From SAR324 cluster bacterium (lineage in GTDB: Bacteria; SAR324; XYD2-FULL-50-16), in the NCBI GenBank assembly GCA_028282885.1, contig JANQGX010000006.1, positions 1-64,000 of the forward strand: 64,000 bases of DNA, in the 5' to 3' direction. Of the stretch, positions 32,328 to 35,372 are shown piece by piece. The notes under the pieces are model-generated. The model saw nothing but the letters and a program-made list of their open reading frames with translations, ran no database searches and was not told where the DNA came from. The position numbers were made by a program, and so were the translations under genes. Within the stretch, counting starts at the first letter, position 1. Every line of letters begins with the position of its first letter.

Positions 32328-33269
32328 TTATTCCTGTTCGGCAAGCCATCGTTCAGCGTCAATTGCTGCCATACAGCCGGTACCGGCGGCAGTAATCGCC
32401 TGGCGATAGACACTATCCATGACATCACCGCAAGCAAAAACACCCTCGATATTGGTTTTTGATGATCCGTCCTGTGTAACCAGATAGTTTTTATCATCCA
32501 GTTCCAGTGAGCTTTCAAAGAGTTTGGTGTTGGGTGTATGTCCGATGGCCACAAACATTCCCTCGGTACCGAGGAGTTTTGTTTCACCTGTCTTTAGGTT
32601 TTTGACCCTGAGATCGGTCATCCCTGTTTCATCACCGATGACTTCGTCAACAACGGAATCCCAGACAACCTCTACTTTTTCATTTTTCAAGACTCTATCC
32701 TGCATCGCCTTACTGCCGCGAAATTCATCTCTCCGATGAACCAGGTATACTCTCTCACAGAAATTGGTTAAGTAGGAAGCCTCTTCCAGAGCGGAATCCC
32801 CGCCGCCGATGACGGCTACTTTTTTTCCTCGATAGAAGAATCCATCACATGTAGCACAGGCCGAAACCCCCCTTCCCTTATACGTGGTTTCACTTTCCAG
32901 TCCTAAATAACGTGCTGAAGCCCCAGTAGCTATGATTAAGGCATCACAGGCATAAAGCTGGTTTCCGACAAACACTTTGAAAGGCCTGACTGACAAATCC
33001 ACCTCGGTGACCTCACCCATTTCTATTTCAGTTTCAAACCGGGCAGCCTGTTTTTCCATGTGACTCATTAATTCGTTTCCATCAACGCCTTCGGGAAAAC
33101 CCGGAAAGTTCTCCACTTCGGTAGTAGTGGTCAGTTGACCACCTTTCTGAAAGCCGGTCAGTATCATCGGCTGCAAATTCGCCCTGGCAGCATATATCGC
33201 CGCAGTGTATCCGGCGGGTCCGGATCCTAAGATAATTACTTTTTTATGTACAGCATCCATTGGTATCAT
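32328..33269 (-). CDS. trxB: Thioredoxin reductase
   Basis: The 313-residue flavoenzyme has FAD motif VIILGSGPAGYTAAIYAARA, redox-active CATCDG (about residue 140), NADPH motif VAVIGGGDSALEEA and C-terminal FAD block GVFACGDVMDS. It reduces thioredoxin with NADPH. The ATG at 33269 overlaps the TGA of the preceding small UGA-containing gene as ATGA, which is a classic sign of translational coupling; ATG 33260 is an alternative start. It is the last gene of the proposed selenocysteine redox operon. Confidence 0.95.
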   Translation of the reverse strand: MIPMDAVHKKVIILGSGPAGYTAAIYAARANLQPMILTGFQKGGQLTTTTEVENFPGFPEGVDGNELMSHMEKQAARFETEIEMGEVTEVDLSVRPFKVFVGNQLYACDALIIATGASARYLGLESETTYKGRGVSACATCDGFFYRGKKVAVIGGGDSALEEASYLTNFCERVYLVHRRDEFRGSKAMQDRVLKNEKVEVVWDSVVDEVIGDETGMTDLRVKNLKTGETKLLGTEGMFVAIGHTPNTKLFESSLELDDKNYLVTQDGSSKTNIEGVFACGDVMDSVYRQAITAAGTGCMAAIDAERWLAEQE

Positions 33270-33430
33270 TCCGTTTTGTCAGTGTGATCTTCCTGATCTG
33301 TCTTTTTCTCCTTTGTCGGCACGCGACAGGTATCCGGCGAGAGTCAGGTTGGGATTCCGAATTTTGGGAGGATCCACTTTTGAAGGGCAAACCAGGCAAC
33401 CACAAAGAGAATTAAATATAAATAGTCCAT
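33266..33430 (-). CDS. Candidate small selenoprotein, one membrane span, UGA at codon 29
   Basis: ATG 33430 opens 28 codons: a membrane helix (MDYLYLILFVVAWFALQKWI) and the turn LPKFGIPT, then an in-frame TGA (33344-33346). The frame continues for 25 codons, LSPDTCRVPTKEKKTDQE and on, to TGA 33266-33268, which overlaps the trxB ATG. Read with Sec, the 54-residue product has a U-x5-C pair in a short cytoplasmic or periplasmic tail. The SECIS-like hairpin follows the TGA. I have a sense that similar tails occur beside trxB-like genes in related bacteria but cannot check. If UGA is a stop, this is a 28-residue peptide. Confidence 0.65.
33317..33336 (-). promoter_or_regulatory. SECIS-like hairpin of the small membrane protein
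   Basis: Seven bases after the UGA, CGGATAC and GTGCCG pair (six pairs, one bulged A, one G-U) around the loop CTGTCGC. The loop holds a G about 17 bases after the UGA, within the range of bacterial SECIS elements. It lacks the classic bulged U, so it is weaker than the other two. Confidence 0.4.
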
Positions 33431-33542
33431 GACTTTGAATAACTCCAGTGAATGATAGGATCAATAAAATCCAAGTTCAAGAAAAATCATTCCCTAACTA
33501 CGGAGAGTAAAACAAGCAGAATGGGTAGCGGGACAGCACATT

Positions 33543-33577
33543 GAACCTGCTGATCCCGCATTGAGGTCAGCAGGTTC
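33543..33577 (-). terminator. Hairpin at the end of the HesB-like gene
   Basis: GAACCTGCTGA/TCAGCAGGTTC, an 11-bp perfect stem with a 13-base loop, overlaps the last codons and the stop of the HesB-like gene. There is no U-tract. It could be a processing or attenuation site before the small gene and trxB. Confidence 0.55.
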
Positions 33578-33860
33578 CGGGCATCATTGATCGAACGACA
33601 AATCCCCTGCCCAAAAACGAGTCTTCAAAATCGATGATGCTGTGGTCAAGGTAATCTTTTTCACTTTTTCGATAGATTATATCTATATCGTTAGATGTAA
33701 CTGTTTCGTCAGATTTGTTTGACTCATCCAGAGTCAGTCCCAGTCTTGGACCACCTCAACCCATTCCCTGGATGAAAAGGCGGATTTTCTTCTTAGCGTG
33801 CTCCTTGAGAATCTCCAGAAGCTCTGTTTTGGCTTTATCAGTAACCTGAATATTGGTCAT
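33567..33860 (-). CDS. HesB/IscA-like selenoprotein, UGA at codon 35
   Basis: ATG 33860 has aaaggaac upstream (spacing 5). Codons 1-34 give VTDKAKTELLEILKEH and then RLFIQGMG. TGA 33756-33758 follows, and the frame continues GGPRLGLTLDESNK to SMMPGTC and TGA 33567-33569 (97 aa). GMG-U-GGPRLGLTLDE is the hallmark of the known HesB-like selenoprotein family, where Sec or Cys takes the position of IscA Cys35. IscA-type proteins bind iron or Fe-S clusters. Annotation software would miss it, since the UGA splits it into two fragments. A hairpin suited to a SECIS lies downstream of the UGA. A sigma-54 promoter precedes it. Confidence 0.85.
33720..33736 (-). promoter_or_regulatory. SECIS-like hairpin of the HesB gene
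   Basis: TGACTC pairs with GAGTCA (6 bp) around the loop TGGAT. Loop Gs lie 27-28 bases after the UGA, inside the usual bacterial range. The sequence is also coding (LDES), as SECIS elements in bacteria are. Confidence 0.55.
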
Positions 33861-33934
33861 AATGTTCCTTTTATCTGTTATCATTAAGAATATTAAGAAA
33901 TCGGTAACGCTTTCCGATGAATTTATGAACATTT

Positions 33935-33950
33935 TGCAGAAGCCGTACCA
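33935..33950 (-). promoter_or_regulatory. Sigma-54 (-24/-12) promoter before the HesB gene
   Basis: TGGTACGGCTTCTGCA on the minus strand matches the consensus TGGCACR-N4-TTGCW at 14 of 16 positions, with GG and GC 10 bases apart, as required. It lies in the 96-base gap between the sigma-54 activator gene and the HesB start. Predicted transcription starts near 33924. Confidence 0.75.
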
Positions 33951-33956
33951 AACCGA

Positions 33957-35372
33957 TTAATCTTCCGGTCTCTGAAGTGGAATATCCCATTTTTTCATAT
34001 ACTTCCAGACGGCGGTTCTACTCACTCCGATTTGACGTGCTACCTCTGCCTTGTTCCATTGATGGGTTACCAGCAGTTCACGTAACGCTTGCGGAGTCAG
34101 GTTTTTTCCAGCTCTGGAATAGGTGTGCCGCGGAACCTGATTTGCGGTGTGGGGAGGAGCGAATTCCGTTTTTCTGATCTCAACGGGAAGGTCAAAGGTG
34201 TCGACCATTTCGGAATTGCAGAGGACAAAGGCATGTTCGATGGCGTTTTCCAGCTCTCTGACATTCCCCGGCCAGTTATAATCCATCAAAATCTGGGTGG
34301 CTGTATGTGTTAATCCCTTGATCTTTTTGCCGGTAGTCTCATTTTGTTGTTTGATAAAGTGGGATACCAAAACGGGAATGTCATCTTTGCGCTCCCGAAG
34401 TGGCGGAACAAAAATGGGGAATACCTTTAACCGATAATAAAGATCTTCCCGGAAGGTACCGCTTTGTACCAACTCATAAAGGTTTTTGTTGGTCGCTGTC
34501 AGAATCCTGATGTTGATTTTCCGTCGTTTGGATTCACCGACCCTTTCGACTTCCCTCTCCTGTAAAACCCGAAGAAGTTTGACCTGGATATAGGGGCTGA
34601 TCTCTCCTATCTCATCCAGGAAAATTGTCCCCCCATCTGCTTCCTCAAATCGCCCCATTCGATCTTTTATGGCACCGGTATACGCCCCTTTGACATGACC
34701 GAAGAGCTCACTCTCCAGCAACGATTCTGTAAGAGCACTGCAATTAACCGTCACCAGTGGTTTGGTCATCCTGTTGCTGTTAAAATGGATGGCGCCGGCA
34801 ACCAGTTCCTTGCCCGTTCCGCTCTCCCCTTCGATCAGAATCGTGGCCTCACTGGCTGCTGCGGCTTTGACGGCTTCGAAAACCTGGCGCATAACATGGC
34901 TTTTCCCAATGATTCGATCAAATCGGTGCACCTCACCAAGTTTGCGTTCGGCCTCTTCGACCTTAAGTTTGGTCTTGGTTAATTCGGTTAAGTCGGTGAC
35001 TGTTTCCACCACTCCCAGAATCCTGCCATTCTCATCTTTCACCAGCCTGGCATTTTTCAAAACGGGGACGCTATATCCCTCCTTGTGCTTGAGATGACAC
35101 TCAACCCCATCAACATATCCTTTGGAAAAAATGCCACAATCCCCATACCTATGGGAATACTCGGAACTAACTCAAAGATCAAAACTAAGAAGCCCGCACC
35201 CCTGCCCTTTTACCTCCTCTTCCCTGTAGCCGGTAATTGCTTCCATGGCGCGATTCCAGACAGTAATTGCCCCTTTCTCATCAAGAACAAAAACCCCATC
35301 AGCCATGGAATCCAACAGAAGAGCGACAAAGCTGCTATCGAGTTCCAGCAATGGGTTAGAACTATCTGCCAT
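33957..35372 (-). CDS. Sigma-54-dependent activator with N-terminal PAS domain, UGA (candidate Sec) at codon 67
   Basis: The AAA+ and DNA-binding part is plain: GESGTGKE (residues 182-189), GAYTGA loop, GGTIFLDEIGE, and a C-terminal Fis HTH (RQIGVSRTAVWKYMKKW). Its normal start has been obscured by TGA 35172-35174. Upstream of that TGA, in the same frame, ATG 35372 (gggaaaaa ribosome binding site) encodes a PAS domain start (LLLDSMADGVFVLDEKGAIT). After the TGA, the PAS domain continues without any stop (YGDCGIFSKGYVDGVECHLK, VPVLKNARLVKDENG). Reading UGA as Sec gives 471 aa, with U67 between C59 and C79/C92. In related activators this region has Cys residues, so a Sec/Cys redox sensor is likely. 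If UGA is a true stop, the activator starts at an internal codon such as 35060 without a good ribosome binding site. Confidence 0.8.
35139..35158 (-). promoter_or_regulatory. SECIS-like hairpin of the PAS activator
   Basis: Thirteen bases after the UGA, ATTCCCAT and ATGGGGAT pair (8 bp, one G-U) around AGGT. A GGU loop about 22 bases after the UGA closely mirrors the E. coli fdhF SECIS loop. It is the best SECIS candidate of the three. Confidence 0.65.

What the first reader, a model, noticed from the sequence alone, without database searches (positions are those of the whole stretch)
32328..35372. Hidden selenocysteine redox operon: activator, HesB, small membrane protein and TrxB
Three consecutive minus-strand genes each carry one in-frame UGA with coherent coding sequence on both sides and a hairpin downstream. 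They are followed by trxB. A sigma-54 promoter precedes the HesB gene, and the sigma-54 activator is the gene upstream. Three independent coincidences in 2.5 kb are unlikely by chance. The set suggests that a Sec/Cys-containing activator senses redox or metal state and induces a Sec HesB, a Sec membrane protein and thioredoxin reductase. HesB-like selenoproteins are known; the combination with a Sec activator and this tiny membrane protein is, as far as I know, undescribed.
Basis: partly seen in the sequence, partly recalled or inferred. Interest (0 to 1): 0.95.

Follow-up and report, generated by a model that had tools for sequence, protein, structure and literature searches.

The report
Selenium-bearing gene switch and its operon
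Three neighbouring bacterial genes each carry an in-frame UGA codon that is predicted to be read as selenocysteine, and with thioredoxin reductase they likely form a redox circuit whose switch protein would itself carry selenium; one of the three belongs to a protein family that occurs in many bacterial phyla and fits no family model searched here.

Summary
A sigma-54 activator (ACT), a HesB-like protein, a one-helix membrane protein (SMP) and trxB are consecutive; the first three carry one in-frame UGA each, and all three pass comparative tests. The ACT UGA falls on a column that is Cys in 120 of 120 listed homologues; four relatives keep UGA there. HesB keeps the UGA in 18 of 20 matches. SMP has UGA in 26 of 26 carriers among 52 genomes of the class (window included). 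A pattern scan gave 80 SMP loci under eleven phylum-level names, 74 with TGA and 6 with TGC/TGT. Sec/Cys pairs of 92% and 82% identity exist. The genome has tRNA-Sec, SelB and SelA. SECIS-like hairpins are good for ACT and HesB, weak for this SMP. A sigma-54-like promoter before hesB is conserved in the genus. A tandem GTAACGTTAC operator occurs at 7 places in 52 genomes, 5 of them at this system, one before a hesB-SMP pair without adjacent ACT. HesB-like selenoproteins are known. A Sec-bearing activator and SMP are absent from the 119-family table read. The signal sensed is inferred (thiol oxidants or sulfane sulfur). Nothing was tested at the bench.

The parts
33957..35372 (-). ACT: sigma-54-dependent activator (PAS, AAA+ sigma-54 interaction, lid, Fis-type HTH), 471 aa read through one in-frame UGA
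   Evidence: PF00158 235.8 bits, PF00989 and PF13426 PAS, PF25601, PF02954; relatives
35172..35174 (-). in-frame TGA of ACT, predicted Sec67
   Evidence: TGA in 5 of 34 matches (G000, G003-G006); Cys at this column in 120 of 120 listed homologues
35140..35157 (-). SECIS-like hairpin of ACT (UUCCCAU-AGGU-AUGGGGA, loop 21 nt after UGA)
35438..35468 (-). tandem operator GTAACGTTAC...GGTAACGTT upstream of ACT
   Evidence: same tandem at ACT of G005 and G006, at G002 ACT/SMP and before G004 hesB-SMP
33935..33950 (-). sigma-54-like promoter TGGTACGGCTTCTGCA before hesB
   Evidence: 10 of 12 consensus positions; 9 of 12 at the same place in L020 and L022; 11 of 12 before hesB in L021
33903..33910 (-). 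GCGTTACC, like half of the operator, between promoter and hesB; also in L020 and L022
33567..33860 (-). HesB: A-type Fe-S carrier-like protein, 97 aa, stop TGA included
   Evidence: PF01521 39.3 bits over its 26.3 cut-off; NF038090 59.2 and TIGR01911 51.6 bits, both below cut-off
33756..33758 (-). in-frame TGA of HesB, predicted Sec35 in GMGUGGP
   Evidence: one TGA in 18 of 20 matches in the class; invariant column in the 12 of 18 TGA forms aligned
33720..33736 (-). SECIS-like hairpin of HesB (GACUC-UGGAU-GAGUC, loop 25 nt after UGA)
   Evidence: best loop UGGAU or UGGAC at +25 in 16 of 17 other class HesB genes with TGA
33266..33430 (-). SMP: one-helix membrane protein, 54 aa, stop TGA included, overlapping a possible trxB start
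   Evidence: 26 of 52 class genomes; 80 loci; 1352 proteins; helix 2-23 predicted
33344..33346 (-). in-frame TGA of SMP, predicted Sec29 after the motif LPxxGxxT
33310..33329 (-). weak SECIS-like hairpin of SMP (UGUCG-CGUGC-CGACA, loop 20 nt after UGA)
   Evidence: -5.2 kcal/mol, fails the -7.5 cut
32328..33269 (-). TrxB: thioredoxin-disulfide reductase (start at 33269 or 33260)
   Evidence: TIGR01292 416.4 bits over 343.45
31418..31903 (-). Rrf2-family regulator that also follows trxB in G005; a neighbour rather than a proven part
   Evidence: TIGR00738 108.7 over 73.3 bits; L020

Best explanation
This is a set of three genes with conserved in-frame UGA codons, predicted to be read as selenocysteine, followed by trxB, in which the first product is a sigma-54 activator that likely binds a GTAACGTTAC operator and would switch on hesB, the one-helix membrane protein and trxB when its Cys/Sec cluster is modified, probably by thiol oxidants or sulfane sulfur. 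Shown by sequence: the UGA codons and their exchange with Cys, the Sec machinery, the gene order, the repeated operator and the promoter-like sites. Inferred: full-length translation, operator binding, the signal, and the work of the products. In the inferred scheme the PAS domain uses C59, Sec67, C79 and C92 as a metal, Fe-S or selenenyl-sulfide switch that releases the AAA+ domain. HesB (Sec35) would carry or repair Fe-S clusters. SMP would anchor a Sec...Cys pair at the inner face of the membrane and pass electrons or sulfane sulfur, and TrxB would supply reducing power from NADPH. Because full-length ACT would need Sec to be made, the circuit would also be gated by selenium supply.
For: Sec in ACT: TGA in 5 genomes at a column that is Cys in 120 of 120 listed homologues, with three further Cys columns at 120, 120 and 119 of 120. 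Sec in HesB: 18 of 20 matches with one TGA. Sec in SMP: 26 of 52 class genomes, all 26 with TGA at the site; 74 TGA against 6 TGC/TGT in 80 public loci; pairs at 92% and 82% identity. Machinery: tRNA-Sec 62.2 bits, SelB 368 bits, SelA 528 bits. SECIS. Regulation. Thiol or sulfur theme: of 151 SMP neighbours 9 are rhodanese and 5 Pyr_redox_2, at least 7 thioredoxin and at least 5 metallo-beta-lactamase fold, while each of these has at most 1 among 85 distant control genes; two neighbours have a sulfide:quinone reductase model as their only listed match; downstream of trxB lie an Rrf2 regulator, homoserine O-succinyltransferase and a Cys/Met PLP enzyme.
Against: No expression, selenium or binding data. 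The SMP hairpin fails the energy cut, and only 7 of 23 class SMPs pass (shuffles 14%), though 65 of 72 of the wider set pass (shuffles 32%). Only 3 of 5 Sec-ACT hairpins pass (shuffles of the four relatives 24%). In the window the tandem operator sits 1.5 kb upstream of the hesB promoter, so here it may mainly serve ACT itself. Two of seven tandem operators lie elsewhere. ACT with UGA was found only in 5 of the 10 genomes of one family; G002 pairs a Cys activator with a Sec SMP. The four-gene set is seen only in three genomes of one genus. The AlphaFold model of ACT has low confidence at residues 61-80 (block means 66 and 59), so a metal cluster is not shown.
Confidence: 0.6

Rival explanations
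1. The three Sec genes are real, but the circuit serves another signal, such as metal or metalloid stress or oxygen damage to Fe-S clusters, and not sulfane sulfur.
For: HesB and the adjacent Rrf2 regulator are Fe-S themed; a cluster of ArsR-like regulators lies near SMP in 9 of 99 loci (two matched the arsR Pfam model); a four-Cys PAS could hold a metal.
Against: Recurrent SMP neighbours are rhodanese, thioredoxin, MBL-fold and flavin disulfide- or sulfide-reductase-like genes.
Confidence: 0.3
2. Only HesB and SMP are selenoproteins; the ACT UGA ends translation and an internal start gives a PAS-less, always-on activator.
For: A 367-aa frame from a TTG at 35060 exists; sigma-54 activators cut free of their sensor are often active (recalled).
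Against: UGA kept in five genomes with 54-66% identity across it in the four relatives, Cys at the same column in 120 of 120 listed homologues; a hairpin about 20 nt after the UGA in all five, with other stem bases in two of them.
Confidence: 0.06
3. TGA is read as a normal amino acid throughout (a changed code), or the genes are decaying.
For: Ten of the 120 listed SMP homologues carry Trp at the site, as if TGA had been read as Trp by a gene finder.
Against: HesB and SMP themselves end at TGA; tRNA-Sec, SelB and SelA are present; the residue exchanged with UGA is Cys; relatives keep frame and UGA.
Confidence: 0.02
4. The gene set is real but ACT does not regulate hesB-SMP-trxB; the operator serves only ACT itself or a divergent gene.
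For: In the window, G005 and G006 the tandem operator is next to ACT and not next to the hesB promoter.
Against: In G004 hesB-SMP has the tandem operator and a sigma-54-like promoter of its own with no ACT in the 14 kb fetched around it; hesB has a sigma-54-like promoter in all three genus members.
Confidence: 0.15

Closest known systems
HesB-like selenoproteins (TIGR01911, NF038090)
   Same: IscA/HesB-type sequence, Sec at the first ligand Cys, UxGP motif as listed in PMC13188914
   Different: scores below both curated cut-offs; sits in an operon with a Sec activator and SMP
sigma-54 enhancer-binding proteins with a PAS sensor (NifA, NorR, PrdR, and an unnamed, mostly deltaproteobacterial four-Cys group)
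   Same: domain order, AAA+ and HTH; four Cys columns shared with the unnamed group
   Different: one of the Cys is replaced by a predicted Sec; below every equivalog cut-off shown
SAO and Tso selenoprotein operons (as named in PMC13188914, which cites Haft and co-workers)
   Same: several selenoprotein genes in one operon
   Different: different proteins: the 52 SMP members gave only 4 weak NCBIfam hits, best E 0.0029, none a selenoprotein model; no Sec regulator is named in the sections read
thioredoxin reductase TrxB (TIGR01292)
   Same: full match over cut-off
   Different: nothing seen; ordinary enzyme with unusual partners

Membership tests
HesB-like selenoprotein subfamily (TIGR01911 / NF038090) | curated score cut-off | tested here: not met
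   51.6 of 66.35 and 59.2 of 85 bits
HesB-like selenoprotein subfamily (TIGR01911 / NF038090) | UxGP motif | tested here: met
   GMGUGGPRLGL; motif from PMC13188914 Table 1
A-type Fe-S carrier (PF01521) | Pfam gathering score | tested here: met
   39.3 over 26.3 bits; profile of 12 relatives matches HI1723 and IscA structures by sequence
A-type Fe-S carrier (PF01521) | binding of Fe-S or iron | not testable with these tools
   needs purified protein
sigma-54 activator (PF00158) | AAA+ sigma-54 interaction domain and HTH over cut-off | tested here: met
   235.8 over 20.2 bits; HTH_8 23.5 over 22; sequence shows GAYTGA (motif recalled)
NifA / NorR / PrdR equivalogs | equivalog cut-off | tested here: not met
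   378.8 of 528.85, 357.4 of 476, 369.9 of 795 bits
bacterial selenoprotein: ACT | in-frame UGA exchanged with Cys in homologues | tested here: met
bacterial selenoprotein: ACT | SECIS within the published model | tested here: met
   loop AGGU at +21, -9.9 kcal/mol; counting this one 3 of 5 Sec forms pass, Cys homologues 2 of 20
bacterial selenoprotein: HesB | SECIS within the published model | tested here: met
   loop UGGAU at +25, -8.3 kcal/mol; 10 of 17 other class HesB genes pass, shuffles 12%
bacterial selenoprotein: SMP | in-frame UGA exchanged with Cys in homologues | tested here: met
bacterial selenoprotein: SMP | SECIS within the published model | tested here: not met
   window copy -5.2 kcal/mol; 7 of 23 class members and 65 of 72 of the wider set pass
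any bacterial selenoprotein | selenium found in the protein | not testable with these tools
   needs 75Se or mass spectrometry
families of NCBIfam and Pfam (for SMP) | match to a family model | tested here: not met
   0 families for the window copy; among 52 members 4 weak NCBIfam hits (best E 0.0029) and 10 weak Pfam hits (best E 0.03)
thioredoxin reductase TrxB | TIGR01292 cut-off | tested here: met
   416.4 over 343.45 bits

The most novel reading that the evidence does not exclude
A transcription activator that carries genetically encoded selenocysteine in its sensor, so that both its synthesis and its sensing depend on selenium: an AND gate for selenium supply and thiol or sulfane-sulfur stress that drives further selenoproteins. 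One of them, SMP, belongs to a pan-bacterial one-helix selenoprotein family that gene finders cut off just before the selenocysteine.
Probability: 0.4. Interest if true: 0.92.

Novelty: new variant of a known kind. Interest (0 to 1): 0.82.

Why it matters
The bacterial selenoproteins in the table read (PMC13188914) are mostly enzymes or their redox partners. A Sec residue in the sensor of a DNA-binding activator would mean that selenium chemistry is also used to read the redox or sulfur state and to set transcription, and it comes with a defined operator, promoter and target set that can be tested. SMP suggests that a selenoprotein family in eleven phylum-level groups has been missed because its product looks like a fragment of about 29 residues. 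The one-helix design (one membrane helix, then T-U-M-S and a Cys a few residues on) is about as small as a redox protein can be.

Tried and rejected
Changed genetic code and decay were rejected (TGA is also the stop of HesB and SMP; Cys exchanges with UGA). A second Sec at the C-terminal TGA of HesB was considered because a strong hairpin (33543-33577, -21.5 kcal/mol) spans it; it was rejected because relatives end at about the same place, some with TAA or TAG. SMP as one of the catalogued families was rejected by the library scans and by reading Table 1 of PMC13188914. The Tso paper (PMC12013261) is not held, so it was judged through that review only. Co-occurrence of SMP with SelB is not informative in this class: SelB is over its cut-off in 48 of 52 genomes. 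The PAS model is too uncertain at residues 61-80 to place the ligands; the 50 PDB fold matches listed are sigma-54 activator AAA+ proteins, and by sequence the PAS part has only weak PDB matches, best E 0.00016. The single palindrome GTAACGTTAC is not informative in this genome (7 sites, reversed control 9); only the tandem is. Rfam and tandem-repeat scans of the window gave nothing, nor did ARAGORN.
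Full report
What is there. On the minus strand the window carries ACT (35372-33957), HesB (33860-33567), SMP (33430-33266) and TrxB (33269-32328). ACT has a PAS domain, a sigma-54 AAA+ domain, its lid and a Fis-type HTH. HesB is an A-type Fe-S carrier-like protein. TrxB is an ordinary thioredoxin reductase. SMP has one predicted helix (residues 2-23; the rest has low confidence) and a charged tail, and fits no Pfam or NCBIfam family. 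Each of the first three has one in-frame TGA: ACT residue 67, HesB residue 35, SMP residue 29.

Is the UGA read as selenocysteine? The genome has tRNA-Sec (62.2 bits, over the family cut-off), SelB (368 over 242 bits) and SelA (528 over 268 bits); SelD was not searched.

ACT. In 52 genomes of the class, 9 gave 34 matches to the PAS part; five matches (G000, G003, G004, G005, G006) have one TGA and 29 have no stop. Loci were made for 30 of the 34; of the 25 without TGA, 20 have TGC or TGT at the aligned codon, and the other five are among the most distant (E above 1e-12) and have another residue or did not align well there. In the protein collection 230 proteins matched; in the 120 listed, Cys stands at columns 59, 67 and 79 in 120 and at 92 in 119. 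So the UGA sits on an invariant Cys of a four-Cys sensor motif.

HesB. Ten of 52 genomes gave 20 matches, 18 with exactly one TGA, two with none. The two without have Cys in a GGGCAGF motif and look like ordinary A-type carriers. HesB-like selenoproteins are known (passages of PMC1794560; PMC13188914, of which I read section 7 parts 1 and 2 of 3, section 9 and section 5). This one scores below both curated cut-offs, so I do not file it in those subfamilies, only in the superfamily.

SMP. In the class 26 of 52 genomes have it, the window's included. The table counts a TGA in 25 rows; in the 26th the match stops short at the contig end, where the last codon is TGA. Their record titles name Planctomycetes, Acidobacteria, Deltaproteobacteria, Cyanobacteria/Melainabacteria, Spirochaetes, Verrucomicrobia, Gemmatimonadetes, Zixibacteria, Rokubacteria, LCP-89 and CSSED10-310: eleven phylum-level names, as given by the submitters. 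A pattern-free profile search found 1352 proteins; of the 120 listed, 77 have Cys at the site, 29 end just before it (28 of them 29 residues long), 10 have Trp and 4 have Ser, Leu, Arg or Gly. Sec and Cys forms that are 92% identical (L027, P0038) and 82% identical (L105, P0003) exist. Where a source names these proteins the name is hypothetical protein; most rows have no name.

SECIS. I coded the model given in PMC13188914 (loop 3-9 nt, G in its first two positions, 16-37 nt after UGA, at most -7.5 kcal/mol, stem of four pairs or more). ACT passes (AGGU, +21, -9.9), HesB passes (UGGAU, +25, -8.3), SMP fails on energy (CGUGC, +20, -5.2); shuffles of these three pass 8% of the time. Pass rates against dinucleotide shuffles: wider SMP set 65 of 72 against 32%; class SMP 7 of 23 against 14%; class HesB 10 of 17 against 12%; Cys-type SMP 3 of 6 against 31%; the four Sec relatives of ACT 2 of 4 against 24%. 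Counting the window, Sec ACT is 3 of 5 and the Cys homologues are 2 of 20. In all five Sec ACT genes a hairpin stands about 20 nt after UGA, with other bases in the stem in G003/G004 than in the window genus. The SECIS evidence is thus supporting, not decisive.

Gene order. ACT-HesB-SMP-TrxB is kept in G005 and G006, the two other genomes of the genus (the G006 contig ends inside trxB); Rrf2 follows in G005. G004 has HesB-SMP without ACT in the 14 kb fetched around it; G002 has SMP divergent from a Cys-type ACT, with a zinc-ribbon gene (PF09723) between them.

Regulation. The sigma-54-like site before hesB is TGGTACGGCTTCTGCA (10 of 12); L020 and L022 have sites of 9 of 12 at the same place, and L021 has one of 11 of 12 upstream of hesB. 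Sites of 10 or more occur 6 times in the window on both strands, so conservation, not the score, is the argument. A palindrome GTAACGTTAC followed by a second GTAACGTT lies upstream of ACT in the window, L020 and L022. The tandem was sought in 52 genomes: 7 distinct places in 5 genomes, 5 of them at this system (ACT of G000, G005, G006; ACT/SMP of G002; hesB-SMP of G004), against 1 for the reversed pattern. G003 has one palindrome upstream of its ACT. The other two places are beside a LysR-type regulator and a membrane 4Fe-4S/FAD protein in G000, and beside a sodium:alanine symporter fragment in G006. In G004 the operator lies about 290 bp before the sigma-54 site, as would suit an enhancer; in the window it is about 1.5 kb from the hesB promoter, and the same holds in G005. 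That is the weakest link.

Function. Near SMP (151 same-strand neighbours, scanned in two batches of 85 and 66) Pfam finds rhodanese 9, Pyr_redox_2 5, thioredoxin at least 7 and MBL fold at least 5; none of these is in two or more of 85 control genes over 2.5 kb away. Only the first 25 families per batch are shown, hence the 'at least'. Controls were at least 100 aa and on either strand, neighbours at least 60 aa and on the same strand, and some loci are close relatives, so the comparison is rough. Of 10 neighbours that I picked for NCBIfam, two have a type III sulfide:quinone reductase model as their only listed match, below its cut-off; three MBL-fold proteins match the GloB model best, one of them also a sulfur transferase/dioxygenase model, all below cut-off. 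Downstream of trxB in the window lie an Rrf2 regulator, homoserine O-succinyltransferase and a Cys/Met PLP enzyme. This favours a thiol and sulfane-sulfur theme. The step from theme to mechanism is inference.

Literature. Two searches for Sec-bearing transcription factors or sigma-54 activators listed 6 irrelevant papers and none (the second asked for six terms at once and is weak evidence). Searches for SMP-like proteins listed none and one; passages of that one (PMC11955535) concern SelW of Campylobacter and another protein. deep-Sep (PMC12013277, passages) and the dual-code deltaproteobacteria paper (PMC8318568, passages) do not name such proteins in the passages seen; the latter mentions a putative Sec histidine kinase in a supplementary table that I did not see, so a Sec-bearing signalling protein has been suggested before. 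The library lacks most subscription papers, so novelty is stated only against these searches and the libraries scanned.

Verdict. By my judgement the Sec reading is very likely for all three genes (about 0.95 for SMP and HesB, 0.93 for ACT). The regulatory link is likely (about 0.75). The sulfane-sulfur or oxidant signal is a working guess (about 0.45).

Noticed in passing
L023:7718-7933 (minus): Zinc-ribbon gene (PF09723, FmdB-type by recall) divergent from the Cys activator in G002, with an in-frame TGA two codons before its end (GGGUGI): another Sec protein or just its stop. A similar-looking frame opposite ACT in G006 (L022:2431-2745) matched no Pfam family.
   Followed up: partly
window:33543-33577: Strong inverted repeat (-21.5 kcal/mol) that spans the HesB stop, between HesB and SMP; may be a processing or attenuation element.
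   Followed up: partly
L220:1501-1548 (G000:C14:83900) and L219:316-359 (G006:C275): The two tandem GTAACGTTAC sites outside the system; in G000 between a LysR-type regulator and a membrane 4Fe-4S/FAD redox gene, a possible further target.
   Followed up: partly
P0013, P0019, P0025, P0028, P0061, P0066, P0071, P0084, P0085, P0089: Ten predicted SMP homologues with Trp at the Sec site, probably TGA read as Trp by gene finders that chose another code; the DNA was not checked.
   Followed up: no
29 of P0090-P0120: Database proteins of 29 or 30 residues that end exactly before the SMP Sec site: a recurrent annotation error.
   Followed up: partly
L055, L058, L060, L061, L064, L066: A second HesB-like paralogue group with G[LV]GUKGS instead of GUGGP and no C-terminal Cys, also with in-frame TGA, in G000 and four relatives.
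   Followed up: no
L022:4178-5158 and 5239-6198: Upstream of ACT in G006 lie a hexapeptide transferase (serine acetyltransferase-like by recall) and a PALP enzyme (cysteine synthase-like by recall), again sulfur metabolism.
   Followed up: partly
whole class: The phylum search returned 52 genomes like the class search, so the organism seems to belong to a small phylum; SAR324 is my recalled guess, not tested.
   Followed up: no
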